In this document: in pieces, positions 6,995 through 61,735 of the stretch
How positions within the stretch are numbered: position 1 is the stretch's first letter
How the letters are laid out: each line of letters starts with the position of its first letter
Assembly: GCA_032433765.1 (NCBI GenBank)
Contig: JAVIAB010000092.1
Coordinates: 35,825,316 to 35,889,315, forward strand
Length of the DNA stretch: 64,000 nucleotides
Reading direction: 5' to 3'
Source of the DNA: Megaustenia siamemsis
Lineage: Eukaryota > Mollusca > Gastropoda > Stylommatophora > Ariophantidae
Translations under genes and position numbers: made by a program
The notes under the pieces: model-generated
The model's database searches: none
What the model was told of the DNA's origin: nothing
The model's input: only the letters and a program-made list of their open reading frames with translations

Positions 6995-7095
6995 AACTCA
7001 TAGAGCATACAAGAGGAATCAGTCAAGATCATGCGATGGATGCTCCACTTATGTGCGATGAATATAGCATTTTAAAAAGCCTAAACAATTACAAA

Positions 7096-7233: not shown

Positions 7234-7344
7234 GAACAATTACAAAGTAGTGACTCTAGTACAACAGATATAGAACAGTTGAGACATTACAAGTGGTTAA
7301 CTCATGTTGTAGAGAGATGTGTATGTGGGGGGGGGGGGGGGGGG

Positions 7345-7432
7345 GGGGAGGATGGTCTAAGGCTACCACGATTGGATAAGAAGGTTGCGGGTTCAATTCC
7401 ACCACAGACTTTGGGAATTTTTCAAAAATATG
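7345..7432 (+). repeat. 5' head of a SINE split by minisatellites
   Basis: ATGGTCTAAGGCTACCACGA and GGTTGCGGGTTCAATTCC align with the head of the SINE at 4310-4560. A run of about 20 G precedes it. The matching body is found only after 9520, and the tail only after 20340. Confidence 0.6.
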
Positions 7433-9520: not shown

Positions 9521-10506
9521 CTCTCGTCCGGCCTCTGGATAGTTAGATCCGATGTCTAGCCTTCTCTCTGGATAGTTAGATCCGATGTCTAGTCCTCTCT
9601 CTGGATAGTTAGATCCGATGTCTAGCCCTCTCTCTGGATAGTTAGATCCGATGTCTAGCATTCTCTCTGGATAGTTAGATCCGATGTTTAGCCCTCTCTC
9701 TGGATAGTTACATCCGATGTTTAGCCTTCTCTCTGGATAGTTAGATCCGATGTCTAGCCTTCTCTCTGGATAGTTAGATCCGATGTCTAGCCTTCTCTCT
9801 GGATAGTTAGATCCGATGTCTAGCCTTCTCTCTGGATAGCTAGATCCGATGTCTAGCCTTCTCTCTGGATAGTTAGATCCGATGTCTATCCTTCTCTCTG
9901 GATAGTTAGATCGATGTCTATCCTTCTCTCTGGGTAGTTAGATCGATGTCTAGTCCTCTCTCTGGATAGCTAGATCCGATGTCTAGCCTTCTCTCTGGAT
10001 AGTTAGATCCGATGTCTTTCCTTCTCTCTGGATAGTTAGATCGATGTCTACCCTTCTCTCTGGGTAGTTAGATCCGATGTTTAGTCCTCTCTCTCGATAG
10101 CTAGATTCGATGTCTAGCCTTCTCTCTGGATAGCTAGATCCGATGTCTAGCCTACTCTTTGGATAGCTAGATCCGATGTCTAGGCTTCTCTCTGGATAGT
10201 TAGATCCGATGTCTAGCCATCTCTCTGGATAGTTAGATCCGATGTCTAGTCTTCTCTCTGGATAGTTAGATCCTATGTCTAGCCCTCTCTCTGGATAGTT
10301 AGATTCGATGTCTAGCCTTCTCTCTGGACAGTTAGATCCGATGTCTAGCCTTCTCTCTGGATAGTTCGATCCTATGTCTAGCCCTCTCTCTGGATAGTTA
10401 GATCCGATGTCTAGCCCTCTCTCTGGATAGTTAGATCCGATGTCTAGCCTTCTCTCTATATAGTTAGATCCGATGTCTAGCCTTCTCTCTGGATAGTTAG
10501 ATCCGA
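9521..10506. repeat. 33-bp minisatellite (left side), interrupted by a Polinton
   Basis: About 29 units carry CTCTGGATAGTTAGATCCGA and TGTCTAGCCTTCT. The unit equals the body of the SINE at 4310-4560 (GAGATCCAATGTCTAG), so it is an expansion of SINE sequence. The array is cut at 10506 by the Polinton terminus and resumes at 19886 with a diverged unit type. Confidence 0.95.
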
Positions 10507-44039: not shown

Positions 44040-44483
44040 AAAAACTTTGTTCTTGCCTCACAAGACACAACTACCAGAGCTTGTAAATCACAACATAGGA
44101 CACAACTACCAGAGCTTGTAAATCACAACATAGGACACAACTACCAGAGCTTGTAAATCACAACATAGGACACAACTACCAGAGCTTGTACAGCTTGTAA
44201 ATCACAACATAGGACACAACTACCAGAGCTTGTAAATCACAACATAGGACACAACTACCAGAGCTTGTAAGTCACAACATAGGACACAACTACCAGAGCT
44301 TGTAAATCACAACATAGGACACAGCTACCAGAGCTAGTAAAGCTTGTAAGTCACAACACAAGACACAACTACCAGAGCTTGTAAATCACAACATAGGACA
44401 CAGCTACCAGAGCTTGTAAATCACAACATAGGACACAACTACCAGAGCTTGTACAGCTTGTAAGTCACAACACAAGACACAAC
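44040..44483. repeat. 35-bp minisatellite (left of Polinton 2)
   Basis: Units carry ACAACTACCAGAGCTTGTAA and ATCACAACATAGGAC, with some longer units (extra CAGCTTGTAA). About 12 units. It ends at CACAAC (44478-44483), where Polinton 2 begins, and resumes at 61609. Confidence 0.95.
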
Positions 44484-44981
44484 AGTAGTATAGCAGGAAG
44501 GATCTGGTTAGTATTTAGGCGCTAAATTAACAAAGATATATAGGGCGGCGCGCGGCGCGCATAAAGCGTGTGGCGCAGGGGGAGTTAACCGTGACATTTC
44601 GTGTCGGGATGTTGACCTCTAGTCCCGGTGACCCCGGAAGTGCGCTGTTTATGTCTGGTGTGTGCTGACTTTGGAGCGCTTGGTGTACTTGAGCGATAGT
44701 GATAGGTTAGTAGATTATACAACATCAATGAAAAACGATCAATATAAGACAGAAGACAAAGATATATTTTATTCTTTTATTATCTCAATAGGTGTATAAC
44801 ATACATTGATATTATATAACATTACAAAAATATTCAGTACAGTGAGTCAATATATAGTACATGGATAACATTTATTTATAGCTATGTAGTTGGGTGTCTG
44901 CTTAGCGTTGTGTCATAAATGAATCATAAGGGGTGAAACTGTTAGAGATTGCTGGTTAGGCTAAGCGGGTAGTGTAAAGAG

Positions 44982-45372
44982 TTAAATATCTAAAGGCATA
45001 GTCGAGACGTTATCATCAGCTACCTTTCTTTTTATATAGAAATAGGAAAGAGCATTTCTTGTTTGACTGTAGGAAAATATGGAATTATTTAAGACTTTGA
45101 AACCTACATTTTTCCCACCCTTGGCCTTTTGCGTGGCTAGAACCTCTAAAAACATATCTTTATCTAATTTGTTGTGTTGCTTGCTTAGCCCTTTACAACT
45201 GATTTTATCGTAATCCCCACTACAATGGTACGTCTTACTACATAAGCTAACAAGAGCTGTCCCTTCGTACTCTAGTTTAAAAAGCCCGGGCGTTCGTTTG
45301 GTGTATGCTTTAACACACTTACAGTTTATACAGTCTGTCTTGCTAGTATGTTCATCGCAGCGATGGTTGTAT
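44982..45372 (-). pseudogene. PolB C-terminal end, left-arm copy
   Basis: The minus-strand frame is open to the TAA at 44982-44984 and encodes the same peptide as 60692-61114, without an ATG. It reads CINCKC where the right copy has CINCKG, so the second Cys of the pair is kept here. It corresponds to the last about 120 residues of a Polinton-type DNA polymerase B. The rest of the gene is replaced by the 31-bp array. Confidence 0.65.
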
Positions 45373-45665
45373 AGGGGTCGTCTAGTGTGTCGTGATGGTT
45401 GTATGGAGGTCGGCTAGTATGTCGTGATGGGTGTATGGACGGCGTCTAGTGTGTCATGATGGGTGTATGGAGGTCGTTTAGTGTATCGTGACGGGTGTAT
45501 GGAGGTCGTCTAGTGTGTCATGATGGATGTATGGTGGTGTCGGCTAGTGTGTCGTGATGGGTGTATGGAGGTCGTCTAGTGTGGTATGAGGGGTGTATGG
45601 AGGTCGTCTAGTGTGATATGAGGGCTGTATCCCGGGCGTCTAGTGTGACATGATAGTTGTAGGTA
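45355..45665. repeat. 31-bp minisatellite, left arm
   Basis: Units carry GGTCGTCTAGTGTGTCGTGA and TGGGTGTATGGA, about ten copies. It starts exactly where the PolB-like reading frame loses family likeness, so it may have grown from polymerase sequence or replaced it. Confidence 0.92.
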
Positions 45666-46018
45666 GAATGTCTGGTATATCATACTTTTATACAACCAAT
45701 AAGAAAACATGAAAAAACGAAGGAATTCAACAATACTTATCTTAACAACTTTACATCAATACAGTTGAATAACCTGTTATCGTTAACCCTTACCATACTT
45801 TAAGAGAAAACATTCAAACTTACAGTATAAAATATAGTCTCAATCATCTACAATGAATATAACCTATTATCGATAAGCGTTAACATACTTTAAGAGAAAA
45901 CAAGCCAACTTACTGTGCAAAACGCCGCTAGAGTGAACAGTAACTTTCCTTGAATCAACCAAACTTATAACACAAAGGCTCGCATGAGACTAGTTTAAAT
46001 ATAGCCTGGTAGCAGATT

Positions 46019-46108
46019 TTAACCAATCAGCGAGTGAGTACGTCAACATCGCTTGATATCGGGATTAACCAATCAGAAAAGAGTATTAACATAGGAGGCG
46101 GGGCGAAG
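46019..46108 (+). promoter_or_regulatory. promoter-like module with CCAAT boxes and a GC box, left arm
   Basis: CCAATCAG occurs at 46023-46030 and 46069-46076, and a third copy lies inside the ORF at 46131-46138. A GC box (GGAGGCGGGGCGAAG) lies at 46094-46108, directly before the ATG at 46111. The segment GGATTAACCAATCAGAAAAG is duplicated. The arrangement resembles an NF-Y/Sp1-type TATA-less promoter. The same module is at 59722-59812 in the right arm. Confidence 0.6.
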
Positions 46109-46110
46109 AA

Positions 46111-46419
46111 ATGGCTGACAGGTGGATTAACCAATCAGAAAAGCGCGTTAGCCGAAGCGTAGGTAGTGGCTGTCGGGTCAGTGGTGGGGGAAAAATGTTG
46201 GGTGGTGGGTTAATTGATCTCGTTTTGACCCCTGAGGCAATTCCAGAAGAGTTCTATGACCTCATTTTGACCGCTGAAGGCTTTAATACCAATGTTTCCC
46301 ACTTCAACGAACGACATACATCATTAAAGGTGATTACTTCAGCTCTTAGACTTTGGAGTTCCATATCTTTATCACTTCAACGAATGACAGACAACAGTAA
46401 AGATGATCATTTCAGGTAA
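46111..46419 (+). CDS. 102-codon ORF of unknown function, left arm (first exon?)
   Basis: ATG at 46111; the stop TAA overlaps a strong splice donor (TTCAG|GTAAGAAAA at 46416), so the ORF may be the first coding exon of a spliced gene. The peptide has MADRWINQSEKRVSRS and a Gly-rich stretch. An internal near-repeat follows (GLIDLVLTPEAIPEEF and YDLILTAEGFN). It is preserved with one residue change in the right arm. No domain is recognised. Conservation may reflect only recent arm duplication. Confidence 0.45.
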   Translation: MADRWINQSEKRVSRSVGSGCRVSGGGKMLGGGLIDLVLTPEAIPEEFYDLILTAEGFNTNVSHFNERHTSLKVITSALRLWSSISLSLQRMTDNSKDDHFR

Positions 46420-46424
46420 GAAAA

Positions 46425-47830
46425 CTTAGTTCCAAACCCTAAAATTTTGGTTCATACTCACAAAGTTGAACACAAACTCTACAAATTTAGGCCCAAAGTT
46501 GTAATTGTTAGACACGAAAGTCGTAAATGTTATATGCAAAGTCCAAAAGTTTGTCAAAAAGACAACCTAAACTCAAAATAATTAGACACAAAGCCCAACA
46601 ATTTATAGGCAAAGTCCAAAAAGTTACTCCAAAAGACAACTAATATAACACTTAATCCCAAAATTGCGTCTCATAACCAAAAAGTTGAACTCAAAACCCT
46701 AAAAACTTACTCCCAAAGTGGTACTAGTTCACCACAAAAGGCGTAATTGTTATATTCAAATCCAAAAGTTTGTCAAAAAGACAACCCAAACTCAAAATAG
46801 TTAGACACAAAGCCCAACAATTTATATGCAAAGGCCAAAAAGTTACTTCAAAATACAACTAATGTAACACTTAACCCCAAAATTTCGTCGCATAACCAAA
46901 CAGTTGAACTCAAAAGCCTAAAAATTTAGTCCCAAAGTCGTAATTGTTCGACACGAAAGTCGTAAATGTTATATGCAAAGTCCAAAAGTTTGTCAAAAAA
47001 GACAACCTAAACTCAAAATAGTTAGACACGAAAGGTAAAAAAAAAAAAGTATATGCAAAGTCCAAAAGGTTACTCCAAAAGACAACTAATGTAACACTTA
47101 ACCCCAAAATTTCGTCGCATAACCAAACAGTTGAACTCAAAAGCCTAAAAATTTAGTCCCAAAGTGATACTAGTTCGACACGAAAGACCAAATAGTTATA
47201 TTCAAAGTCCAAAAGTTTGTCAAAAAGACAACCTTAACTCAAAATAGTTAGACACAAAGCCCAACAATTTATATGCAAAGGCCAAAACGTTACTCCAAAA
47301 GACAACTAATGTAACACTTAACCCCAAAATTTCGTCGCATAACCAAACAGTTGAACTCAAAAGAATAACAATTTAGTCCCAAAGTCGTAATTGTTCGACA
47401 CGAAAGTCGTAAATGTTACATGCAAAGTCCAAAAGTTTGTCAAAAAGACAACCTAAACTCAAAATAGTTAGACACGAAAGGTAAAAAAAAAAGTATATGC
47501 AAAGTCCAAAAGGTTACTCCAAAAGACAACTAATGTAACACCATTGCACAAAAATTTCGTTGCGTAACCAAAAAGTTGAACTCAAAACCCTACAAAATTT
47601 AAACCCAAAATCAAAATAGTTAGACACGAAAGACCAAATAGTTATATTCAAAGTCCAAAAGTTTGTCAAAAAGACAACCTTAACTCAAAATAGTTAGACA
47701 CAAAGCCCAACAATTTATATGCAAAGTCCAAAAAGTTACTCCAAAAGACAACTAATGTAGCACTTAACCCCAAAATTTCGTCTCATAACCAAAAAGTTGA
47801 ACTCAAAACCCTAAAAAGTGTCCACTTATC
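46425..47830. repeat. about 200-bp tandem array, left arm
   Basis: Degenerate units share GTCCAAAAGTTTGTCAAAAA, GACAACCTAAACTCAAAATA and AACCCCAAAATTTCGTCGCA. Each unit mixes several short AA(C/A)TC-type motifs. No ORF has support. The mirror array is at 58010-59410. Confidence 0.9.
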
Positions 47831-48149
47831 AACCAAAGTCTTTAATACAGCTGAGAAAACCCTAATAAATAATTACAATTTACTAAAAATGTTGCACTTG
47901 ATGATAGCTGCGACTGTGTCTAAATCATTATTGAAAATATTCATAGAACTCTAGTAAAAACCAAACACACTAAAACACCACATTGAAAGAATGAACTTAA
48001 AGTTCACGCCCCTGTCACAACTCTGCTAAGAAAAGTACGACAAAGCATGAAAGTTATGGCCCCTGCTATAACTCTACTAAACGAAAGTATTACCAAACAC
48101 GTAGGTTACACTCCTACCATAACCCACTAAGAAAAACAAGATTTTGCTT
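47831..48149. other. left-arm spacer, no gene seen
   Basis: Low-complexity AT-rich DNA with phrases such as GTTACACTCCTACCATAACC. It is mirrored at 57650-58009. Confidence 0.5.
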
Positions 48150-49480
48150 AAAATACCACATTATGATTGTTACGCCCCTTGTCCCTTTATGAGGGGTACG
48201 CCCATGAAACTGTTAGAAATAGTAAATTTACACTCTAGGGCTACTCCAAACTTTACATTAAGCATCCCCGTATCAAGAATTTACTTAAAAGTCACTTTTA
48301 GGGTTGTTACGCCCCTTGACCCTTATGAGGGGACGCCCATGAAACTGTTAAAGATAGTAAATTTAACCTCTAGACATACCCCAAACTTTATATTAAGCAT
48401 CCCTGTATCAAGAATTTACATAAAAACAACTTTTGAAATTACTACCCCTGTACCCATTTTTGGCGGTTACGCCCATGAAACTGTTAAAGATAGTAAATTT
48501 AACCTCTAGACATACCCCAAACTTTATATTAAACATCCCCGTATCAAGAATTTACTTAAAAACCACTTTTATGAGTGTGGCCCCCTTACCCATTTTTGAT
48601 GGTTACGCCCATGAAACTGTTAAAAATAGTAAATTTAACATCTAGACATACCCCAAACATTATATTAAGCATCTCCATATCAAGAATTTACATAAAAACA
48701 ACGTTTGAAATTACTACCCCTGTACCCATTTTTGGCGGTTACGCCCATGAAACTGTTAAAAATAGTAAATTTAACATCTAGACATACCCCAAACTTTATA
48801 TTAAGCATCTCCATATCAAGAATTTACATAAAACCAACTTTTGAAATTACTACCACTGTACCCATTTTTGGCGGTTACGCCCATGAAATCGATAAAAAAT
48901 TGAAATTTAACATCTAGACATACCCCAAACTTCATTTTAGTCATCCTCATATCAAGAATTTACATAAAAATCACTTTTGAAATTACTACCCCTGTACCCA
49001 TTTTTGGCGGTTACGCCCATGAAATCGATAAAAAATTGAAATTTAACAGCTAGACATACCCCAAACTTTATATTAAGCATCCCCATATCAAGAATTTACA
49101 TAAAAATCACTTTTGAAATTACTACCCATGTACCCATTTTTGGCGGTTACGCTCATTAAACTGTTAAAAATAGTAAATTTAACATCTAGACATACCCCAA
49201 ACTTTATATTAAGCATCCCCATATCAAGAATTTACATAAAAATCACTTTTGAAATTACTACCCATGTACCCATTTTTGGCGGTTACGCCCATGAAACTGT
49301 TAAAAATAGTAAATTTAACATCTAGACATACCCCAAACTTTATATTAAGCATCTCCGTATCAAGAATTTACTTAAAAACAACTTTTGAAATTACTACCCC
49401 GGTACCCATTTTTGGCGGTTACGCCCATGAAATCGATAAAAAATTAAAATTTACCCTATTGGTATACCTCAAACATAATA
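48150..49480. repeat. about 136-bp tandem array, left arm
   Basis: Units carry GGCGGTTACGCCCATGAAAC, TAGACATACCCCAAACTTTA and ATCAAGAATTTACATAAAAA. The period is not divisible by three, so overlapping 70-codon ORFs recur and are artefacts. About ten units. The mirror copies are at 49735-50045 and 56673-57650. Confidence 0.93.
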
Positions 49481-49544
49481 TTTGAAACGCCCATGTATCA
49501 AATTTACATGAAAAATCAACCAAAAATTAGTAGTATATATCCAG

Positions 49545-49690
49545 TGATTGGACCCCTGAAAGTATTTCCAGAAGCACCTAAATCCTTATATAAATAGTCT
49601 ACCCTCACATGGAAGCACATTTTTTGGTGCCGTTTTTCCTTATATGAGAGTCTACCCGGTCAATCACTGGATATACACTACTAATTTTTG
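49545..49690. other. centre of the palindrome
   Basis: The flanks AACCAAAAATTAGTAGTATA and its mirror (ACTACTAATTTTTGGTTGAT) meet across about 110 bp of non-symmetric sequence that contains imperfect inverted stretches (CCTTATATAAATAGTCTACC / CCTTATATGAGAGTCTACCC). The centre holds no gene. Confidence 0.85.
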
Positions 49691-50058
49691 GTTGATTTTT
49701 CATGTAAATTTGATACATGGGCGTGTCAAATATTATGTTTGAGGTATACCAATAGGTTAAATTTAAATTTTTTATCGATTTCATGGGCGTAACCGCCAAA
49801 AATGGGTACCGGGGTAGTAATTTCAAAAGTTGTTTTTAAGTAAATTCTTGATACGGAGATGCTTAATATAAAGTTTGGGGTATGTCTAGATGTTAAATTT
49901 ACTATTTTTAACAGTTTCATGGGCGTAACCGCCAAAAATGGGTACATGGGTAGTAATTTCAAAAGTGATTTTTATGTAAATTCTTGATATGGGGATGCTT
50001 AATATAAAGTTTGGGGTATGTCTAGAGGTTAAATTTCAATTTTTTTTTTTTTTATCGA

Positions 50059-50090
50059 GTGACGTCATAGGACGCACCAAGATGGCATCT
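50059..50090 (+). promoter_or_regulatory. LINE 5' end with CRE and YY1-like sites
   Basis: The first bases of the LINE are GTGACGTCATAGGACGCACC followed by AAGATGGCATC. TGACGTCA is the palindromic ATF/CREB site. CCAAGATGGC matches the YY1 core that directs start-site choice in mammalian L1. Both lie within 30 bases of the 5' junction defined by the target duplication. Confidence 0.6.
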
Positions 50091-50396
50091 TATTTACATT
50101 CGAGCCATGGCCTAAACAATGTTGACTATGAACATTACGATTTCTGCTATCACAGCGAGTTGGCAGATTTTTAGAAATGCAATCAAGGTTTGAAAATAAA
50201 TGTTTGTACACAGTTCGTTAACCTTCGCTGTAGATAAAGTCTTTATTCTGATGGCTTTTTCATGACCTTGGAAACTAAGGACCTAACTTGTGCAAACGGT
50301 TGGTTTGAGGAAAATTGTACCTTACAATGTCACTGCCATAATGACTCAGTTTGTGACAAGAAATCAACTTCAGACTGGTTCTAACAGACTCCAATT

Positions 50397-53300
50397 ATGA
50401 CAGAAACTACTGCTGATCGGAAGGGCTTCAAAAAACAGCTGAATTTAATACATTGGAATGCGGAGGGCATATACCACAAGAAACAAGCTCTAACAATTAG
50501 ACTAGCAGAGGAGGAGATAGATGTTGCTTGCATCCAGGAATCTCATCTTAATCCTCAGCACAGATTCATGATCAGGGGCTACCAAACATTTAGACAAGAC
50601 AGGGAAGGTCACAAGGGTGGAATTCTTATTCTTATTAAAAATTCCGTCCCAGCAAAGATGATAGATGTATTCACAAATGGAGAGGCAGAGATCATTGGTG
50701 CAGATTTATACATTAACTCCGCTTGTATAAGGATATATAATATATACTGTCCAAATGACAAATTACTGAAGCTGGAGTCAATGGAATTAACACCATCAAA
50801 GTGTCTGGTAGTAGGAGACTTTAACAGCCACTCTGAAAGATGGGGATATAGGGAGTCCAATGTTCGAGGTGAAGAAGTAGAAGAATGGGAAATAGACAAC
50901 AACCTATTCCTCATAAACTCTAGGGAGGACCCCCCAACCTTCTACTCAAGAAGATGGAAAACAACTTCCACCCCTGACCTAGCGTTTGCAACTGGAGACA
51001 TGTCTATCAAAATAACCAGAAAAGTGCTGAACCAACTTGGAGATAGTGACCATAGACCAGTCAAACTTTCAGTGGCTCTTGCTCACAAACAGGAGTTGCA
51101 AATACCTCTTCCACGCTGGAATTATAAGAGAGCAGATTGGGCAAAGTTTGCAAGGCTCACTGATGCATATACTGCACCTATCAACACCCACGAAAAGAAG
51201 GTAACAAATATGATAGAGCGGTTAACATATGGCATCATGAGAGCTGCTAAAGAATCCATTCCTAGAGGAGCAAGAAAAAACTACAGGCCATACTGGAGCA
51301 AGGAAATACAAAGACTAGAAGAGGAACTGGACTCTGCCAGAGAACTAGCTGAAACATCACACACCACAGAGAGCAATATTGCCTACAAAGCAGCCTCGGC
51401 CAAATACAGACGAGAGGTCATGACTTCAGCCAGACAGAGCTGGATAGACAAAACAGAGAGCCTTAATCTAGACAAAAATGGTCATAAACTATGGAAACTT
51501 GCGAAACCTCTGAGTGGCGAAAACACTTGCCGACCACCAATATCATTAGCACACAATCAGAACATCCTCACAGGCAAAAGGGCAGCAAATCTACTGATAG
51601 AGACTTACAAAAACATTAGTAGAATAAACATTCCAATAGACAAACAGAAAGCTGCAAGGCAGGAAAACCAAGATGCAAAACACATGCCTTTTGCACCAGA
51701 AGAGCATCAGACGACCATCTTTACCCCAACTGAATTAGATGTTGCACTCAAAGGATTGAAGCTCAAAAGTTCACCTGGTAAAGATGGAATCTCCAACGAA
51801 ATGCTTCTAAATCTGGGGCATAAAGCCAAGAGCCAGCTTCTAAGGATACTAAATGCTAGCTGGAAGAGCGGTCATGTGCCGGCAATCTGGAAAGAAGCTA
51901 TTATGGTGCCCATTCTCAAGTGTGGAAAAGACCCACTAGACCCAAGTAGCTATAGACCAATTAGCCTACTGAGCTGCCTGAGTAAACTCATGGAAAGACT
52001 GGTTAACAGAAGACTTGTGTGGCATTTGGAGACAAAACAACAAATCGTACCACAACAAAATGGCTTCCGTAAGCACCGATCAACTGAAGACCTGGTCACC
52101 TACATTGCACAGGAAATAGAGGATGCTCTACAAGAAAAGAAACACACGCTGGCAGTGTGGGTCGACATGGAGAAGGCTTTTGATAGGGTTTGGCGTGAGG
52201 GTTTAAAGAACAACCTTTTTAGACTTGGCATCCAGGGTCGTTTATTCAATTGGGTCTCTCAATACCTTCAGGATAGAACGGCCAGAGTACAAGTTCAAGG
52301 TCAACTAAGTAAGAAGGTCTCTATCGAGCAAGGTGTCCCACAAGGCGGAGTCTTGTCCCCAACACTCTTTTTAATTTTCATAAATGACATCGTAATGGAC
52401 ATTCCACCCAGAATACACTCAGCAATATACGCAGATGATCTGGCGTTATGGACTCGCGAGGAAAGTATGTCAGTGGCTGGTTCCAGGATGCAAGATGCCC
52501 TAGGTGAACTTGAAAAGTGGACGAACACCTGGTTCTTACCAATCAACGAAAGGAAAACTTCATACACAATTTTCAGCCTATCAAGGAAAACACTCTCTGC
52601 AAATTTGAAGTTAAAGGATCATACACTACCTATTGATCACAGCCCAACATATCTTGGTGTCACTATGAATCGCAGAATGACTTGGAAAAATCAGATAGAC
52701 AGAGCAAGGATGAAAGCCAGGAAACGAACAAATATTATGAAGAAATTGGCAGGAACGGACTGGGGGGCAGACAGCAATATTTTGAAAAGACTATATGTAG
52801 GAAGAGTCAGACCAGTTCTAGAATATGGAGTCACAGCCTGGGCTATGGCTTCCAAATCACACCTTTGTAAAATTAACAGAATACAGAACCAAGCTGCCCG
52901 TATCATTACTGGTGCTATGAAATCTACACCTATCAAGACTCTAGAAACAGTAACAGGCTTACAACCCTTAGATGACAGACGGGTCACTAAAGTTTTGCAA
53001 CAAGCGGAGAAATATAGAAGGCTCCTTAGCCACCCCATGCAACAAAGAATATCTGGTTCTGGAATTGTACGACTTAAGAGGAGCAACTTCGCTGCAATTG
53101 CCAATGAACTAACTACTGGAGACCCAGTTCTTTCCCAAACAATATCGAAACCCTTGGGCCCATCTGATATGTCTCCTCACGGAAAACATAAAATACCAGA
53201 ACTTCAGGAAAACATAACAGGAATCATGAAAAAAGGCACCCAATCAGACACAGAAAGAAAACACGTAGCAGAAAAACATATACACGATACTTACCCACAG

Positions 53301-54107
53301 GACTCTTGGTCCCACATATATACAGATGGCTCTGCTACAAATGCCACCAGAAATGGAGGGGGAGGTGTGTTCTTGACGCTGACCAATCAGGACGAGATCA
53401 ACAAGTCAATAGCTACTGGAAAATTCTCTAACAACTTTAAAGCAGAAACTGAGGCCATCAGAGAAGCTGCAACACTGGCTACTCAACACAAAAATAACAT
53501 GCACAATAAATTGGTGATTCTGACTGATGCACTATCAGTACTATCAGCTCTAATAAACCACAAGAACAATGAACTAGATGACTTGAGAACAACCCTGGAC
53601 CAACTATGCAATAACTTCCAGAGAGTAGTCATTCAGTGGATACCATCACACTGTAATATACACGGGAACGAACGAGCAGACAAATTAGCTAAAGAGGGAG
53701 GGAGATTACCACAAGAGAACAATCCGCTCAGTTATGATGAAGCCAAATCCATCCTCAAGGGTCAGTTCCATGAAAAATGGAAACGTGAACACCCAAAGCA
53801 TAACGAGAGTGACGGATACCACCAACTATCAAGGAGGGATCAAGTCATCATACTTCGCCTACGCACAGGCCACAATAGAATGAGAAATCACATGTTCACC
53901 AAATTCAAAATAGGAACTACCAGCCTATGCCACTGTACACTGGACAATATGACAACAAAACATGTTCTACAGGATTGCCCCCAGTACACGGACCTAAGAA
54001 GAGCAATGTGGTCCACGCCCACCTCCCTGGAGGAGAAATTATATGGGGCGATCGATTCGCTTAAACAGACAGCTGACTTCATGAGAGAGACTGGAATCCT
54101 ACTCTGA
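50397..54107 (+). CDS. LINE polyprotein: endonuclease, reverse transcriptase, RNase H (intact)
   Basis: There are 1236 uninterrupted codons. Residues about 15-235 form the APE-type endonuclease (LIHWNAEGIYHK, CIQESHL, VVGDFNSH, SDHRPV). Residues about 470-730 form the reverse transcriptase (FRKHRSTEDL, QGVPQGGVLSPTLFLIFIND and IYADDLALW at about 677). Residues about 970-1105 form RNase H (IYTDGSA, AETEAIREA, ILTDALSV, NERADKLAKEG), with all four acidic residues. A C-terminal CHC…H…C cluster (CHCTLDNMTTKHVLQDC) follows. RNase H in a single long ORF suggests an I/Ingi-like clade. No ORF1 is seen between the 5' end and this gene. It appears translatable. Confidence 0.95.
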   Translation: MTETTADRKGFKKQLNLIHWNAEGIYHKKQALTIRLAEEEIDVACIQESHLNPQHRFMIRGYQTFRQDREGHKGGILILIKNSVPAKMIDVFTNGEAEIIGADLYINSACIRIYNIYCPNDKLLKLESMELTPSKCLVVGDFNSHSERWGYRESNVRGEEVEEWEIDNNLFLINSREDPPTFYSRRWKTTSTPDLAFATGDMSIKITRKVLNQLGDSDHRPVKLSVALAHKQELQIPLPRWNYKRADWAKFARLTDAYTAPINTHEKKVTNMIERLTYGIMRAAKESIPRGARKNYRPYWSKEIQRLEEELDSARELAETSHTTESNIAYKAASAKYRREVMTSARQSWIDKTESLNLDKNGHKLWKLAKPLSGENTCRPPISLAHNQNILTGKRAANLLIETYKNISRINIPIDKQKAARQENQDAKHMPFAPEEHQTTIFTPTELDVALKGLKLKSSPGKDGISNEMLLNLGHKAKSQLLRILNASWKSGHVPAIWKEAIMVPILKCGKDPLDPSSYRPISLLSCLSKLMERLVNRRLVWHLETKQQIVPQQNGFRKHRSTEDLVTYIAQEIEDALQEKKHTLAVWVDMEKAFDRVWREGLKNNLFRLGIQGRLFNWVSQYLQDRTARVQVQGQLSKKVSIEQGVPQGGVLSPTLFLIFINDIVMDIPPRIHSAIYADDLALWTREESMSVAGSRMQDALGELEKWTNTWFLPINERKTSYTIFSLSRKTLSANLKLKDHTLPIDHSPTYLGVTMNRRMTWKNQIDRARMKARKRTNIMKKLAGTDWGADSNILKRLYVGRVRPVLEYGVTAWAMASKSHLCKINRIQNQAARIITGAMKSTPIKTLETVTGLQPLDDRRVTKVLQQAEKYRRLLSHPMQQRISGSGIVRLKRSNFAAIANELTTGDPVLSQTISKPLGPSDMSPHGKHKIPELQENITGIMKKGTQSDTERKHVAEKHIHDTYPQDSWSHIYTDGSATNATRNGGGGVFLTLTNQDEINKSIATGKFSNNFKAETEAIREAATLATQHKNNMHNKLVILTDALSVLSALINHKNNELDDLRTTLDQLCNNFQRVVIQWIPSHCNIHGNERADKLAKEGGRLPQENNPLSYDEAKSILKGQFHEKWKREHPKHNESDGYHQLSRRDQVIILRLRTGHNRMRNHMFTKFKIGTTSLCHCTLDNMTTKHVLQDCPQYTDLRRAMWSTPTSLEEKLYGAIDSLKQTADFMRETGILL

Positions 54108-54121
54108 TCGAGTCTTGATCG

Positions 54122-54122
54122 C

Positions 54123-54162
<40 letters not shown>
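54122..54162 (+). repeat. (GA)n tail of the full-length LINE
   Basis: TGATCGCAGAGAGAGAAAGA and further GA follow the stop at 54107 after a very short 3' end. A matching TGATCGCAGAGAGAGAGAGA ends the second LINE fragment at 56634-56660. The family therefore ends in GA repeats, not poly(A). Confidence 0.85.
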
Positions 54163-54163
<1 letters not shown>

Positions 54164-55600
54164 ATGACAAAACTACAGGGATATGCCCAAACAATGACAT
54201 TTATCAGCACGAATATTTTGGACCCCAGTGTCAGTACTTGGTTCTCGTGTACAAATACGCCTAAAAATTCTGAACCTACTTTCCTGTTTAATTACAACGA
54301 CACCACTTGTAACTCGGACGCAAATTCTACATCAGTTGAGGCAACTCTCATTCAATCTTTGCTGTTCTCATGGTTTAGGATTTATGCAAATGACTTAATA
54401 GTTCCGGACAGTTTCACGACATTACTAAATGGTTCTGCCTCATGTAGCAATGATTCAAGGTTTGTAGTTAGTCAGCACGAGATTGATGTCTTTTGCTCTG
54501 GGGCTGATCTGATCAACAAGTTATGATTGCAGGGTCGATAGTTGCAAATATCTGCTCCATCCACATAGGCGGGGGTCGGAATGTGGCTCTCAATCAGAAC
54601 ACAAACCAGGCCGACACGTTTAATTCTTGTTATACAGGAGACGAATGTGGACCAGAGGCCGCAGTAAATGACAAAAGAAGGACCAATCTCTATGACAATG
54701 ACTGCACACACACAAAACTGAGAAGTGGAAACAGTCCTGTTTACTGGTATCTGAACTTTGCCACGCCCCAGTAGATTCACTCACACCATTCGATTCTATC
54801 ATCAAGCTAGCACTAAGATTCGGGTAAAGAATGCCACTCAAAAGGCTTCCTCTGACAGTGGCGGTGTAGTGTTCCAGTCTAATGATATATCATATCCAAA
54901 TGTTTCTATGAACACTATTGTAGTCACCACACAAACGCCAATGGCACACATTAAGACTGAGTTCTCACCGATCATTTCGCAGGCCGGCAGTGAACCGACG
55001 GTGTGTGAGGCGCAAACATTTGCAGACACCTATTGTCTGGACGGGTATTCTTGGTCGTTTTGTGCAGTGTATAGTGGGTGTAGCAAAAGCTGCGACTTCA
55101 TCATTGGTACGTGTCACGGCAAATGCTCACATGGGGTCTATGGACACGATTGCTCCAGGTCTTGTCTCAGTGTCTGTCCTTTATGTGGGAAAAATCTTGA
55201 AAATGACTACAATGTAAACATCCTGGCTATACCTGTAATGACACTTGTCCCGATGGTAATTTTGGGCTACAGTGCGAACAGACATGTTCTGATGGCTGTG
55301 ACATCATATGTGACCCGGAAAGTGCATACTGCACGTGCAAGGAAACGTACTACGGGTCAGACAGCACTCTCAAATGTCCAGACAACTGTTTCAACGACAC
55401 ATCTGAACAGTCAGCCGGGAACAGTGCATGCAAGGGAAAGTTCTACGTGTCAGACTGCATTCTCAAATCTCCGGACAACTGTTTGAACGAAACCTGCGGA
55501 CAGTTAATCGAAGCCTGCGTCTCGTATGTCAATGATTCACACGTTAAGAAGAGTCTGCAGACTAACCCAAGCATATGGATACCTCAATGTGTTTATGTGC
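54164..55600 (+). pseudogene. fragment of an EGF-like / galactose-binding-like multidomain gene
   Basis: Frames that shift several times give an EGF end (TGICPNNDIYQHEYFGPQCQ) and then a jelly-roll F5/8C-like segment (SWFRIYANDLIVPDSF, GGGRNVALNQNTNQ, AVNDKRRTN, YWYLNFATP). A further beta-rich stretch and two or three EGF/MEGF-type units follow (CHGKCSHGVYGHDCSRSC; CPDGNFGLQCEQTCSDGCD; YCTCKETYYG). This order recurs in large mollusc receptor-like genes, where it is often followed by a membrane helix and a kinase or phosphatase; none is seen here. At least four frame breaks are present. Introns are not evident, so it may be processed or one large exon. It lies inside the LINE insertion. Confidence 0.7.
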
Positions 55601-56310
55601 TAGACTTGGCTCATTTCTTGGTGTTTTTCCGTGAAGACATGACTCATATCTTAATGTTTTTCTGTGCTAGTCATGGCTCATATCTTGGGGTGTTACTGTG
55701 CTAGCCATGGATCAAATCTTAGCTTAAGTGTATGTTGTGTGTGTGTGTGTGTGTGTGCTAGCCATGGCTCATATCTAGATGTGTGTCATCTTAGTCATAT
55801 CTCATATCTTGGTGTGTCCGTGTTAATCATGTCTCTTATCTTTATGTGCGTCTCAGTTTAGTAATATATCATAACTTAGTGTGTATCTGTGTTAGTCATG
55901 TGTCATATCTTTGTGTGTGCATGTCTGGGTTAGGGATATCTCATATCTTTGTTTGCATGTTTATGTTAGTCATATCTCATATCTTTGTGCGTACATGTCT
56001 GTGTCTGTCACATCTCATATTCTTGTGTGTGCATGGCTACGTAAGTCACATCTCATATCTTTGTGTGTGCATGCCTATGTTAGTCATATCTTATATCTTT
56101 GTGTGTATGTCTATGTTAGGTATGCGTCATATCTTTGTGTGTGCATGTCTAAGTCAGTCATATCTCATAGCTTTATATGCATGTCTATGTTAGTCATGTG
56201 TCATATATCTTGATGTGTGTCAGTGTTAGTCATGGCTCGTATCGCTGTGCACTTGTCTGTGTTATTCACATCTCATATCTCTGTGTGTGCATGTCTGTGT
56301 TAGTCACCTC
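55600..56310. repeat. about 50-bp tandem repeat within the transduced segment
   Basis: Units carry TAGTCATATCTCATATCTTT then GTGTGTGCATGTCTATGT, with a (GT)n stretch at 55737-55757. Degenerate, 12 or more units. It looks like intronic minisatellite DNA that follows the last EGF-coding stretch, so the source locus was probably genomic, not fully spliced. Confidence 0.88.
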
Positions 56311-56564
56311 TAGTGACTCGGGCAGATGGTGCTCGTAAACCTGGGAGGGTAGACCATCTAAGGGCAGAGTCCCCCTACAGAAAAGACAATCTGCTGCCTT
56401 GCAGGAAGATTGGGGACAATCAAAGGCTAAGGAAAGCAAACCTGAAAAAATGCTGGCTGAAATCGGATGCACTGGGCCACTGGCGCAGAACACAGTGCAA
56501 CGTATTAACGGGTGTTCAGTCAGAGTGGATCTGGCGGACTCTAAATGTGACGTTCTGTCTGTGG

Positions 56565-56660
56565 GGGCGATCAACACCCTTAACCTGACAGTTGACTTCA
56601 TGTGGGAGTCTGGAATCCTACTCTGACTGAGTCCTGATCGCAGAGAGAGAGAGAGAGAGA
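56565..56660 (+). repeat. second LINE 3' end with GA tail
   Basis: GGGGGCGATCAACACCCTTA to GACTTCATGTGGGAGTCTGG and TCCTACTCTGACTGAGTCCT match the last 85 bases of the full-length LINE (54045-54130), including the stop and GA tail. Sequence before about 56565 (56313-56560) is not clearly from that LINE. Confidence 0.75.
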
Positions 56661-56672
56661 ATTTTTTATCGA

Positions 56673-57650
56673 TTTCATGGGCGTAACCGCCAAAAATGGG
56701 TACAGGGGTAGTAATTTCAAAAGTGATTTTTATGTAAATTCTTGATATGAGGATGACTAAAATGAAGTTTGGGGTATGTCTAGATGTTAAATTTCAATTT
56801 TTTATCGATTTCATGGGCGTACCCGCCAAAAATGGGTACAGTGGTAGTAATTTCAAAAGTTGGTTTTATGTAAATTCTTGATATGGAGATGCTTAATATA
56901 AAGTTTGGGGTATGTCTAGATGTTAAATTTACTATTTTTAACAGTTTCATGGGCGTAACCGCCAAAAATGGGTACAGGGGTAGTAATTTCAAACGTTGTT
57001 TTTATGTAAATTCTTGATATGGGGATGCTTAATATAATGTTTGGGGTATGTCTAGATGTTAAATTTACTATTTTTAACAGTTTCATGGGCGTAACCGCCA
57101 AAAATGTGTACTGGGGTAGTAATTTCAAAAGTTGTTTTTATGTAAATTTTTGATACGGGGATGCTTAATATAAAGTTTGTGGTATGTCTAGATGTTAAAT
57201 TGACTATTTTTAACAGCTTCATGGGCGTAACCATCAAAAATGGGTAAGGGGGCCACACTCATAAAAGTGGTTTTTAAGTAAATTCTTGATACGGGGATGT
57301 TTAATATAAAGTTTGGGGTATGTCTAGAGGTTAAATTTACTATCTTTAACAGTTTCATGGGCGTAACCGCCAAAAATGGGTACAGGGGTAGTAATTTCAA
57401 AAGTTGTTTTTATGTAAATTCTTGATACAGGGATGCTTAATATAAAGTTTGGGGTATGTCTAGAGGTTAAATTTACTATCTTTAACAGTTTCATGGGCGT
57501 CCCCTCATAAAGGGTCAAGGGGCGTAACAACCCTAAAAGTGACTTTTAAGTAAATTCTTGATACGGGGATGCTTAATGTAAAGTTTGGAGTAGCCCTAGA
57601 GTGTAAATTTACTATTTCTAACAGTTTCATGGGCGTACCCCTCATAAAGG
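56673..57650. repeat. about 136-bp tandem array, right arm
   Basis: Reverse-complement units of those at 48150-49480 (GTTTCATGGGCGTAACCGCC, TAAAGTTTGGGGTATGTCTA). Confidence 0.93.
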
Positions 57651-58009
57651 GACAAGGGGCGTAACAATCATAATGTGGTATTTTAAGCAAAATCTTGTTT
57701 TTCTTAGTGGGTTATGGTAGGAGTGTAACCTACGTGTTTGGTAATACTTTCGTTTAGTAGAGTTATAGCAGGGGCCATAACTTTCATGCTTTGTCGTACT
57801 TTTCTTAGCAGAGTTGTGACAGGGGCGTGAACTTTAAGTTCATTCTTTCAATGTGGTGTTTTAGTGTGTTTGGTTTTTACTAGAGTTCTATGAATATTTT
57901 CAATAATGATTTAGACACAGTCGCAGCTATCATCAAGTGCAACATTTTTAGTAAATTGTAATTATTTATTAGGGTTTTCTCAGCTGTATTAAAGACTTTG
58001 GTTGATAAG

Positions 58010-59410
58010 TGGACACTTTTTAGGGTTTTGAGTTCAACTTTTTGGTTATGAGACGAAATTTTGGGGTTAAGTGCTACATTAGTTGTCTTTTGGAGTAACT
58101 TTTTGGACTTTGCATATAAATTGTTGGGCTTTGTGTCTAACTATTTTGAGTTAAGGTTGTCTTTTTGACAAACTTTTGGACTTTGAATATAACTATTTGG
58201 TCTTTCGTGTCTAACTATTTTGATTTTGGGTTTAAATTTTGTAGGGTTTTGAGTTCAACTTTTTGGTTACGCAACGAAATTTTTGTGCAATGGTGTTACA
58301 TTAGTTGTCTTTTGGAGTAACCTTTTGGACTTTGCATATACTTTTTTTTTACCTTTCGTGTCTAACTATTTTGAGTTTAGGTTGTCTTTTTGACAAACTT
58401 TTGGACTTTGCATATAACATTTACGACTTTCGTGTCGAACAATTACGACTTTGGGACTAAATTTTTATTCTTTTGAGTTCAACTGTTTGGTTATGCGACG
58501 AAATTTTGGGGTTAAGTGTTACATTAGTTGTCTTTTGGAGTAACTTTTTGGCCTTTGCATATAAATTGTTGGGCTTTGTGTCTAACTATTTTGAGTTAAG
58601 GTTGTCTTTTTGACAAACTTTTGGACTTTGAATATAACTATTTGGTCTTTCGTGTCGAACTAGTATCACTTTGGGACTAAATTTTTAGGCTTTTGAGTTC
58701 AACTGTTTGGTTATGCGACGAAATTTTGGGTTAAGTGTTACATTAGTTGTCTTTTGGAGTAACCTTTTGGACTTTGCATATACTTTTTTTTTTTTACCTT
58801 TCGTGTCTAACTATTTTGAGTTTAGGTTGTCTTTTTTGACAAACTTTTGGACTTTGCATATAACATTTACGACTTTCGTGTCGAACAATTACGACTTTGG
58901 GACTAAATTTTTAGGCTTTTGAGTTCAACTGTTTGGTTATGCGACAAAATTTTGGGGTTAAGTGTTACATTAGTTGTATTTTGAAGTAACTTTTTGGCCT
59001 TTGCATATAAATTGTTGGGCTTTGTGTCTAACTATTTTGAGTTTGGGTTGTCTTTTTGACAAACTTTTGGATTTGAATATAACAATTACGCCTTTTGTGG
59101 TGAACTAGTACCACTTTGGGAGTAAGTTTTTAGGGTTTTGAGTTCAACTTTTTGGTTATGAGACGCAATTTTGGGATTAAGTGTTATATTAGTTGTCTTT
59201 TGGAGTAACTTTTTGGACTTTGCCTATAAATTGTTGGGCTCTGTGTCTAATTATTTTGAGTTTAGGTTGTCTTTTTGACAAACTTTTGGACTTTGCATAT
59301 AACATTTACGACTTTCGTGTCTAACAATTACAACTTTGGGCCTAAATTTGTAGAGTTTGTGTTCAACTTTGTGAGTATGAACCAAAATTTTAGGGTTTGG
59401 AACTAAGTTT
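58010..59410. repeat. about 200-bp tandem array, right arm
   Basis: Mirror of 46425-47830 (GGTTGTCTTTTTGACAAACT, TTTTGAGTTCAACTTTTTGG). No gene. Confidence 0.9.
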
Positions 59411-59412
59411 TC

Positions 59413-59721
59413 TTACCTAAAATGATCATCTTTACTGTTGTCTGTCATTCGTTGAAGTGATAAAGATATGGAACTCCAAAGTCTAAGAGCTGAAGTAATC
59501 ACCTTTAATGATGTATGTCGTTCGTTGAAGTGGGAAACATTGGTATTAAAGCCTTCAGCGGTCAAAATGAGGTCATAGAACTCTTCTGGAATTGCCTCAG
59601 GGGTCAAAATGAGATCAATTAACCCACCACCCAACATTTTTCCCCCACCACTGACCCGACAGCCACTACCTACGCTTCGGCTAACGCGCTTTTCTGATTG
59701 GTTAATCCACCTGTCAGCCAT
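59413..59721 (-). CDS. 102-codon ORF of unknown function, right arm
   Basis: Same ORF as 46111-46419 with one conservative change (Val to Ile) and the same promoter-like module upstream. The end reads TTTTAG|GTAAGAAA, which keeps a good splice donor. It points toward the palindrome centre, as does the left copy. Confidence 0.45.
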   Translation of the reverse strand: MADRWINQSEKRVSRSVGSGCRVSGGGKMLGGGLIDLILTPEAIPEEFYDLILTAEGFNTNVSHFNERHTSLKVITSALRLWSSISLSLQRMTDNSKDDHFR

Positions 59722-59812
59722 TTCTTCGCCCCGCCTCCTATGTTAATACTCTTTTCTGATTGGTTAATCTCGATATCAAGCGATGTTGACGTACTCACTC
59801 GCTGATTGATTA
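59722..59812 (-). promoter_or_regulatory. promoter-like module, right arm
   Basis: The minus strand carries the GC box GGAGGCGGGGCGAAG just before the ATG and an upstream CCAAT box in the duplicated GATTAACCAATCAGAAAAG. The outer box is changed by substitution (AATCAATCAGCG), so the right arm has one box fewer than the left. Confidence 0.55.
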
Positions 59813-60184
59813 AAATCTGCTACCAGGCTATATTTAAACTAGTCTCATGCGAGCCTTTGTGTTATAAGTTTGGTTGATTCAAGGAAAGTTACTGTTCACT
59901 CTAGCAGCGTTTTGCACAGTAAGTTGGCTTGTTTTCTCTTAAAGTATGTTAACGCTTATAGGTTATATTCTAACAGGTTATATTCATTGTAGATGATTGA
60001 GACTATATTTTATACTGTAAGTTTGAATGTTTTCTCTTAAAGTATGGTAAGGGTTAACGATAACAGGTTATTCAACTGTATTGATGTAAAGTTGTTAAGA
60101 TAAGTATTGTTGAATTCCTTCGTTTTTTCATGTTTTCTTATTGGTTGTATAAAAGTATGATATACCAGACATTCTACCTACAAC

Positions 60185-60725
60185 TATCATGTCACACTAG
60201 ACGCCCGGGATACAGCCCTCATATCACACTAGACGACCTCCATACACCCCTCATACCACACTAGACGACCTCCATACACCCATCACGACACACTAGCCGA
60301 CACCACCATACATCCATCATGACACACTAGACGACCTCCATACACCCGTCACGATACACTAAACGACCTCCATACACCCACCATGACACACTAGACGCCG
60401 TCCATACACCCATCACGACATACTAGCCGACCTCCATACAACCATCATACCCCACTAGACGACCTCCATACACCCATCATAACACACTACCCGCCCTCCC
60501 TGTACCAATCACGACACACTAGACGACCTCTATACACCCATCACGACACACTAGACGCCCTCTATACACCCAATATGACACACTAGACGACCTCCGTACA
60601 CCCATCACGACACACTAGACGCCCTCTATACACCCAATATGACACACTAGACGACCTCCGTACACCCATCACGATATACTAGCCGACCTCCATGCACCCA
60701 TCACGACACACTAGACGACCCCTAT
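60185..60725. repeat. 31-bp minisatellite, right arm
   Basis: Units carry CATCACGACACACTAGACGA and CCTCCATACACC, about 17 copies, more than in the left arm. The last unit supplies the ATG of the PolB-like frame. Confidence 0.92.
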
Positions 60726-61114
60726 ACAACCATCGCTGCGATGAACATACTAGCAAGACAGACTGTATAAACTGTAAGGGTGTTAAAGCATACACCAAAC
60801 GAACGCCCGGGCTTTTTAAACTAGAGTACGAAGGGACAGCTCTTGTTAGCTTATGTAGTAAGACGTACCATTGTAGTGGGGATTACGATAAAATCAGTTG
60901 TAAAGGGCTAAGCAAGCAACACAACAAATTAGATAAAGATATGTTTTTAGAGGTTCTCGCCACGCAAAAGGCCAAGGGTGGGAAAAATGTAGGTTTCAAA
61001 GTCTTAAATAATTCCATATTTTCCTACAGTCAAACAAGAAATGCTCTTTCCTATTTCTATATAAAAAGAAAGGTAGCTGATGATAACGTCTCGACTATGC
61101 CTTTAGATATTTAA
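60692..61114 (+). pseudogene. Polinton-type DNA polymerase B, C-terminal end only (right arm)
   Basis: A 140-codon frame whose first 12 codons come from the 31-bp minisatellite. The rest (TPGLFKLEYEGTALVSLCSK, then KISCKGLSKQHNKLD and SYSQTRNALSYFYIKRKVAD) resembles the end of PolB proteins of Polintons and adintoviruses as I remember them: TPGLFK, the SKTY region, the SCKG box, the YxQ…YFYxKR box and a final LDI. None of the polymerase or exonuclease motifs is present. It lies about 500 bases from the element terminus, reading outward. Likely a remnant, not a functional gene. Confidence 0.65.
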
Positions 61115-61608
61115 CTCTTTACACTACCCGCTTAGCCTAACCAGCAATCTCTAACAGTTTCACCCCTTATGATTCATTTATGACACAACGCTAAGCAGAC
61201 ACCCAACTACATAGCTATAAATAAATGTTATCCATGTACTATATATTGACTCACTGTACTGAATATTTTTGTAATGTTATATAATATCAATGTATGTTAT
61301 ACACCTATTGAGATAATAAAAGAATAAAATATATCTTTGTCTTCTGTCTTATATTGATCGTTTTTCATTGATGTTGTATAATCTACTAACCTATCACTAT
61401 CGCTCAAGTACACCAAGCGCTCCAAAGTCAGCACACACCAGACATAAACAGCGCACTTCCGGGGTCACCGGGACTAGAGGTCAACATCCCGACACGAAAT
61501 GTCACGGTTAACTCCCCCTGCGCCACACGCTTTATGCGCGCCGCGCCCCTATATATCTTTGTTAATTTAGCGCCTAAATACTAACCAGATCCTTCCTGCT
61601 ATACTACT
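61115..61608. other. right terminal region of Polinton 2
   Basis: Non-coding. It includes AATAAAAGAATAAAATATAT (61315-61334), which offers a polyadenylation signal for the outward PolB-like frame, and the GC-rich end (GCGCGCCGCGCCCC). Mirror of 44484-44981. Confidence 0.6.
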
Positions 61609-61735
61609 CACAACTACTAGAGTTTGTAAATCACAACATAGGACACAGCTACCAGAGCTTGTACAGCTTGTAAGTCACAACATAGGACACAGTTACCAGA
61701 GTGTGTAAGTCACAACTACCAGAACTTGTAGTTTA
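61609..61735. repeat. 35-bp minisatellite (right of Polinton 2)
   Basis: CACAAC (61609-61614), then about three to four diverged units of the array at 44040-44483. Confidence 0.88.

What the first reader, a model, noticed from the sequence alone, without database searches (positions are those of the whole stretch)
44484..61608. A Polinton-like element that is almost entirely a giant palindrome
Seen: exact inverted ends, 6-bp CACAAC on both sides, arms of about 5 kb that mirror each other in PolB tail, arrays, small ORF and promoter, and a 145-bp centre. Known: Polintons replicate with a protein-primed PolB and make 6-bp target duplications; linear protein-primed viruses such as adenovirus can give defective genomes made of inverted duplications of one end. 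Inference: this is a snap-back or defective-interfering-like Polinton that kept only one terminal region and was still integrated by an integrase supplied in trans. I know of no described Polinton of this kind.
Basis: partly seen in the sequence, partly recalled or inferred. Interest (0 to 1): 0.9.

Follow-up and report, generated by a model that had tools for sequence, protein, structure and literature searches.

The report
Palindromic Maverick elements carrying only PolB
This genome holds hundreds of copies of a mirror-image mobile element with the ends of a Maverick virus; in the copies examined the only recognised gene of its own is a DNA polymerase, whole or in part in each arm, and the element likely copies itself by folding back on one arm and is likely inserted by an enzyme made by another element.

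Summary
44484-61608 is a real insertion: (AGT)2 ends, CACAAC on both sides, flanking minisatellite reading on. The arms mirror each other (~5 kb, ~110-bp centre); a ~6.6-kb LINE insertion splits the right arm.

It is not a lone defect. In the same 2.59-Gb genome a terminal 40-mer has 770 sites and a PolB 40-mer 1,179; of the 100 listed of each, 88 and 80 sit in mirror pairs. PolB-bearing members have PolB in both arms with equal or near-equal scores, often open for ~1,475 aa; the one centre read (12.3-kb element) holds only repeats. The window copy keeps only the PolB tail.

Ends, 6-bp duplications and a VSR-type insertion in PolB point to a group I Maverick derivative. No integrase, ATPase or capsid frame was recognised in the parts read; A32-type ATPase matches (127) lie elsewhere, so helpers are possible but unproven.

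Arms of one element are each other's nearest relatives (15 of 16), elements differ by ~3.5%, and fold-back points differ. Snap-back replication, copying one arm from the other, is the best explanation; protein priming and integration in trans are inferred. Gene conversion between arms is the main rival.

The parts
44478..44483 (.). left 6-bp target-site duplication CACAAC
61609..61614 (.). right 6-bp target-site duplication CACAAC
44484..44492 (+). left terminal motif AGTAGTATA, (AGT)2 as in Mavericks
   Evidence: Maverick motif from PMC8097293 passages
61600..61608 (-). right terminal motif, inverse of the left
44484..49550 (+). left arm of the palindrome
49551..49660 (.). unpaired centre, about 110 bp
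49661..50059 (-). right arm, inner piece
50060..56659 (+). later LINE insertion (endonuclease-RT-RNase H frame 50397-54107, (AG)n at 54123-54160, 54164-56600 non-LINE stretch, second LINE 3' end plus (AG)n); shared TTTTTTATCGA at both edges; not part of the element
56660..61608 (-). right arm, outer piece
44982..45359 (-). PolB C-terminal tail, left arm, reading toward the left terminus
   Evidence: identity to PolB
60692..61114 (+). PolB C-terminal tail, right arm (inside a 140-aa frame)
45362..45661 (+). 32-bp minisatellite, left (mirror 60179-60734)
46111..46419 (+). 102-aa frame, left (mirror 59413-59721 -); found intact in only 9 of 30 arms by exact-start search, so hardly a conserved gene
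46462..47817 (+). 220/446-bp tandem array, left (mirror 58017-59397)
48197..49432 (+). 136-bp tandem array, left (mirror 49729-50045 and 56673-57637); also around the centre of the PolB-bearing palindromes C51 and C90
44059..44483 (.). 35-bp minisatellite in host flank (continues after 61614) = target site

Best explanation
It is a copy that keeps only the PolB tail, in a large family of Maverick-like palindromes whose fuller members carry the gene for a predicted protein-primed DNA polymerase in both arms; it is likely copied as a linear DNA that folds back on itself so that one arm templates the other, and is likely inserted by an integrase supplied by another element. Shown: palindromes with (AGT)2 ends and 6-bp duplications; PolB frames of about 1,475 aa, in several pairs open in both arms; arms of one element nearer to each other than to any other element; several different fold-back points. 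Inferred: descent from Mavericks by loss of the other genes, protein priming at the ends, snap-back of the displaced strand (a half element is then the unit of inheritance, and a new fold point gives a new size class), replication of PolB-less copies by PolB from other copies, and integration in trans by a Maverick integrase.
For: Family size and symmetry: 770 terminal sites and 1,179 PolB sites, backward controls 0; of the 100 listed of each, 88 and 80 in mirror pairs against 0.007-0.009 neighbours per site expected by chance. PolB: 38 of 78 scored hits have frames of at least 1,400 aa without stop; 16 of 16 close pairs are divergent; 10 of 16 have the same score in both arms, the rest within about 2 bits; in 8 of 16 both arms have at least 1,400 aa open. 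The centre of the C51 pair is mirror plus 136-bp array only. Ends and duplications: 13 of 16 elements (10 exact 6-bp, 3 inside microsatellites) and 9 of 9 PolB-bearing elements with both ends found (read by eye). PolB class: homologs, many with PF03175, Vsr match, group I Maverick VSR insertion (PMC10328495 passage), predicted structure of a homolog nearest to phi29 polymerase. Arms: 15 of 16 and 12 of 14 elements have mutually nearest arms; 0.0031 within against 0.0348 between, 0 of 20,000 shuffles; mosaics between elements are the same in both arms. Fold-back points: C107, C105b and C155 lie outside the large arrays and differ; C91c, C49, C90 differ but lie inside arrays. Possible helper: 127 A32-type ATPase matches.
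Against: No terminal protein, extrachromosomal form or transcript was observed. No integrase-bearing element with the same ends was found. The A32 ATPase matches are weak (E 1.7e-10 to 5e-4), the same profile also rings in 2 of 14 control genomes, their neighbourhoods were not read, and 0 of 13 on contigs covered by my partial site lists lie within 25 kb of a listed site, so the helper is unproven and may be another lineage. Arm identity could also come from gene conversion after insertion; arm differences are patchy in some elements (C107: 7 of 9 in the outer 500 bp). C1 and C24 have mirrored host flanks of 100 and 539 bp and no duplication, and C41a matches in only 5 of 6 bases, so some palindromy arose or spread in the chromosome. 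20 of 100 listed PolB sites and 12 of 100 listed terminal sites had no listed partner; 1 and 4 close neighbours had other orientations. C73 arms tie with C41b, and C151b and C24 fail the inner-region test. Both arms of C107 and C90 carry broken PolB frames.
Confidence: 0.6

Rival explanations
1. The palindrome arose once or a few times; cut-and-paste or replicative movement spread it, and gene conversion between the arms after insertion (as in sex-chromosome palindromes) keeps them alike.
For: Differences between arms are unevenly spread in C107, C90, C104 and C91b (variance/mean 1.9-4.4; alignment in arrays may inflate this for C104 and C91b); arm conversion in long palindromes is well known (recalled).
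Against: Different fold-back points in C107, C105b and C155 need repeated new folding; C105b and C155 show no patchiness; the LINE in the window's right arm was not copied to the left.
Confidence: 0.22
2. A non-autonomous element with very long terminal repeats (Foldback/Galileo-like), moved only by a DDE integrase; PolB is cargo and plays no part.
For: Long, internally repetitive inverted repeats occur in Foldback and Galileo (start of abstract of PMC3573991); 6-bp duplications need only an integrase.
Against: PolB is open in many copies and present in both arms; arms are homogenised as units. Ends and PolB are Maverick-type.
Confidence: 0.1
3. Palindromes form in the chromosome after insertion of an ordinary half element, by replication U-turns.
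For: C1 and C24 have mirrored host flanks without a target duplication.
Against: 13 of 16 and 9 of 9 elements with both ends have a matching duplication of at least 6 bp at both ends, which needs the whole palindrome to be inserted.
Confidence: 0.05
4. Assembly artefact (collapsed or misjoined reads).
For: Long palindromes are error-prone in assembly (recalled); no reads were at hand.
Against: Same layout at dozens of loci with different flanks, different lengths and own arm differences.
Confidence: 0.02

Closest known systems
Maverick/Polinton, group I (intact vertebrate Mavericks, PMC8097293, passages seen)
   Same: (AGT)2//(ACT)2 ends, 6-bp duplications; PolB with VSR insertion (PMC10328495 passage)
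   Different: No integrase, ATPase, protease or capsid frame recognised; terminal-site spans of 3-12 kb instead of 15-20 kb (PMC5718144 passage); whole element palindromic
Adintoviruses and bidnaviruses (PMC11071296 passages; PMC4061559 start of abstract)
   Same: Related PolB; best matches in the viral structure library are densovirus-named (bidnavirus-like, my reading) and adintovirus polymerases
   Different: No capsid gene recognised; PolB in both mirror arms
Adenovirus defective/snap-back genomes (recalled, no call)
   Same: Inverted duplication of one end of a protein-primed linear genome, with variable fold points
   Different: Here amplified in a genome, with long polymerase frames in both arms of many copies
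Yeast linear killer-plasmid hairpin/palindrome derivatives (recalled; the listing showed no paper on them)
   Same: Protein-primed linear DNA giving hairpin and palindromic dimer forms
   Different: Cytoplasmic plasmid, not an integrating element
Foldback/Galileo elements (PMC3573991, start of abstract)
   Same: Very long, internally repetitive inverted repeats
   Different: P-element-type transposase

Membership tests
Maverick/Polinton | 6-bp target-site duplication | tested here: met
   window and 12 of 15 further elements, 3 of them inside microsatellites; 9 of 9 PolB-bearing elements with both ends
Maverick/Polinton | (AGT)2//(ACT)2 end motif | tested here: met
   (C116 reads AGGAGT); motif from PMC8097293
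Maverick/Polinton | protein-primed PolB | tested here: met
   family members: by homology and predicted fold of a homolog; the window copy has only the tail. Priming itself not tested
Maverick/Polinton group I | VSR-like insertion in PolB | tested here: met
   Vsr structures E 3e-5 with a profile of 34 homologs; PMC10328495 passage
Maverick/Polinton | retroviral-type integrase inside the element | tested here: not met
   none in the window element (frames of 80 aa or more; 5 frames run through Pfam) nor in the centre of C51 (longest non-PolB frame 118 aa in the array, not run through Pfam); other copies not read fully for it
Maverick/Polinton | capsid proteins, packaging ATPase, protease inside the element | tested here: inconclusive
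   none recognised in the same parts; no dedicated capsid or protease search was made on them; A32-type ATPases lie elsewhere in the genome; PF00770 search not answered
Maverick/Polinton | 15-20 kb length (PMC5718144 passage) | tested here: not met
   44 terminal-site spans 3.4-12.1 kb; C51 element 12.3 kb
Adenovirus-type snap-back genome (features recalled) | free linear DNA with terminal protein | not testable with these tools
   only an assembled genome is at hand
Adenovirus-type snap-back genome (features recalled) | inverted duplication of one end with variable fold point | tested here: met

The most novel reading that the evidence does not exclude
A capsid-less, integrase-less lineage descended from Mavericks has turned one genome end plus its polymerase into a self-replicating mirror genome: a half element is the true hereditary unit, each replication round rebuilds the other half by snap-back, new fold points create new size classes, and the lineage parasitises the integrase of resident Mavericks. 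It would be a nuclear, integrating counterpart of hairpin linear plasmids, with its own PolB-less satellites such as the window copy.
Probability: 0.5. Interest if true: 0.9.

Novelty: new variant of a known kind. Interest (0 to 1): 0.86.

Why it matters
Mavericks are thought to replicate by protein priming, but this has hardly been testable (recalled). A family with hundreds of sites, paired arms and many fold-back points gives a natural record of how such DNA replicates, and suggests that a Maverick can be reduced to a polymerase and an end and still amplify. It would also add snap-back as a source of long palindromes in genomes.

Tried and rejected
Considered and rejected: lone defective copy; the small 102-aa frame as a conserved gene (intact in 9 of 30 arms by exact-start search); the 28-kb middle of C105a as Maverick genes (the two fetched parts, about 13 kb, are head-to-tail Penelope-like RT units); Rfam families in the window (none at gathering score). 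Led nowhere: Pfam and PHROGs on single PolB pieces (only C2H2 fingers were found above the usual cut-offs); viral contigs (1 remote locus); L049, a guessed stretch of another copy, gave no arm match; literature searches for palindromic Polintons or Mavericks (20 of 44 and 20 of 20 papers listed) and for snap-back, linear-plasmid or adenovirus palindromes, in whose listings I saw no such element (titles and starts of abstracts only).
Full report
OBSERVATION. The element runs from 44484 to 61608. Both ends read AGTAGTATAGCAGGAAGG inward, with CACAAC on either side. The flanks are one 35-bp minisatellite which continues across the duplication. The arms mirror each other over about 5 kb around a 110-bp centre at 49551-49660. 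The right arm is split by an insertion of about 6.6 kb (50060-56659) holding an endonuclease-RT-RNase H frame, (AG)n tails and a shared TTTTTTATCGA at both edges (read). So about 10.5 of 17.1 kb is palindrome.

FAMILY. The window lies in a held assembly of 2.59 Gb in 155 contigs. The terminal 877 bp gave 41 scored places, many in +/- pairs 8-12 kb apart (the tool scores only the best candidates). I fetched stretches of 19 further elements; with the window, 18 of 20 show mirror arms. In C154a and C154b no left arm was found in the fetched stretch. A terminal 40-mer, up to 2 mismatches, has 770 sites (384 + 386, backward control 0); of the first 100 listed, 88 form 44 convergent pairs spanning 3.4-12.1 kb, with 3 same-strand and 1 divergent close neighbours. 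Only 5 of these 44 pairs hold a listed zero-mismatch PolB site, and each of the 5 holds exactly two. A PolB motif-A 40-mer has 1,179 sites (583 + 596, control 0); of the first 100 listed, 80 form 40 divergent pairs 0.7-11.4 kb apart, with one same-strand neighbour. At least one of the 20 unpaired PolB sites (C1:10419811) does have a partner, seen but not listed. Both lists are the first 100 zero-mismatch sites in contig order, so the pairing fractions are for those parts of the genome.

POLB-BEARING MEMBERS. A PolB piece gave 78 scored matches, 95-100% identical. Of these, 38 have frames of at least 1,400 aa without stops; 16 close pairs are all divergent; 10 of 16 have the same score in both arms, and 8 of 16 have at least 1,400 aa open in both arms. 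The C51 pair (termini at 103049715 and 103062023, 12.3 kb) has a centre made only of PolB starts, a 136-bp array and a short spacer, 99.3% mirrored over 1,285 bp. It is the only centre read of a pair with PolB open in both arms; C107, C105b and C90, whose centres were also read, have broken PolB frames. The window copy keeps the PolB tail, the 136-bp array and the centre, with other repeats in between. That the palindrome is the family's usual form and PolB loss secondary is inference.

WHAT POLB IS. Homologs (1,928 at E <= 0.001) include proteins of snails, lancelets, echinoderms and corals, many with PF03175; the closest are metagenome proteins at 61-64%, the closest named ones Littorina and Nucella at 52 and 51%. 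A profile of 34 homologs matches Vsr endonuclease (E 3e-5); 19 of 34 match PF03175 and 2 of 34 PF03852. This genome's own PolB pieces match no polymerase family convincingly in Pfam or PHROGs on their own. A ~140-aa VSR insertion marks group I Mavericks (PMC10328495 passage). The predicted structure of homolog P0001 (mean pLDDT 86.9) is nearest to phi29 protein-primed polymerase among solved chains (ranks 1-6, TM by target 0.66-0.69), and to densovirus-named and adintovirus polymerases among viral models. An OTU-like stretch is my reading of the sequence; such a domain is described for this class (PMC11071296, PMC11071308 passages).

ENDS AND INTEGRATION. Exact 6-bp duplications: 10 of 16 elements, 3 more inside microsatellites; C41a matches in 5 of 6; C1 and C24 have none, their host flanks being mirror images over 100 and 539 bp. 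PolB-bearing elements: 9 of 9 with both ends found; the tenth, C73p, lacked its left end in the fetched stretch (duplications read by eye, C90p with a third AGT and C101 in a TA run). The (AGT)2 ends and 6-bp duplications are those of intact vertebrate Mavericks (PMC8097293 passages).

ARMS. For the terminal 876 bp, 15 of 16 elements with both arms have arms nearer to each other than to any other arm; C73 ties with C41b. Mean distance is 0.0031 within against 0.0348 between; 0 of 20,000 label shuffles reach it. For a 580-bp inner region 12 of 14 (C151b and C24 fail), 0.0056 against 0.0635, again 0 of 20,000. Only matches covering at least 75% of a region entered. Trees of the two regions disagree between elements (the window is nearest C116 in one, C105a in the other) while both window arms agree: mosaics arise between elements but both arms carry the same one.

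FOLD-BACK POINTS. C107: left arm and loop are collinear with C90, then jump back about 950 bp. C105b: a loop of about 210 bp inside PolB, with 5 bases between the two matches. C155: 38 bp within the window-type arm. C91c, C49 and C90 turn inside arrays at other places, where the exact point is uncertain. Repeated, different turning points with the same retained end are what snap-back of a displaced strand would give.

MECHANISM. Likely: terminal-protein priming at (AGT)2 ends, strand displacement, self-annealing of the displaced strand, synthesis of the second arm from the first, then integration by a Maverick-type integrase in trans. Only the products are shown. A possible helper exists: 127 matches to the A32-type ATPase family among 150 scored candidates, about two thirds with the same 252-aa open frame (87 by hand count). 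The matches are weak, the profile also rings in 2 of 14 control genomes, 0 of the 13 on contigs covered by my partial site lists lie within 25 kb of a listed site, and their neighbourhoods could not be read. That such ATPases mark Mavericks is recalled.

AGAINST. Arm differences are clustered in C107, C90, C104 and C91b, not in C105b and C155, which leaves room for gene conversion. Mirrored host flanks at C1 and C24 show that palindromes can also grow in place. C107 and C90 carry broken PolB frames in both arms.

NOVELTY. Searches for palindromic Polintons or Mavericks listed no such element, judged from titles and starts of abstracts of the papers listed; the library lacks most subscription papers. 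I file it as Maverick-derived, not as a Maverick, since integrase was tested and not met in the parts read and the length differs. The host species was not identified.

Noticed in passing
window 50060-56659: LINE insertion that seems to carry about 2.4 kb of downstream sequence with frames resembling EGF-rich proteins (my reading; no Pfam support), followed by a second LINE 3' end and (AG)n: looks like a 3' transduction.
   Followed up: partly
C24 (L043, L044, L050) and C1 (L025, L026): Host flanks of the palindrome are mirror images over 539 and 100 bp, with no target duplication: palindromy extends into host DNA.
   Followed up: partly
C49, L027 and L028: Three termini in about 9 kb with microsatellite flanks in opposite senses: a rearranged or nested palindrome.
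   Followed up: no
C105a, L038 and L039: 28 kb inserted between the arms; the fetched parts are head-to-tail Penelope-like RT units (GIY-YIG-like ends, my reading).
   Followed up: partly
genome-wide: 127 A32-type ATPase matches, about two thirds with one 252-aa open frame and near-equal scores: looks like a recently active element family of its own.
   Followed up: partly
window 7001-10000: Strong strand asymmetry (AT skew to -0.88 with GC about 0.5).
   Followed up: no
arms of 16 elements: Terminal and inner regions give different trees between elements, but the two arms of an element mostly share the same mosaic.
   Followed up: partly
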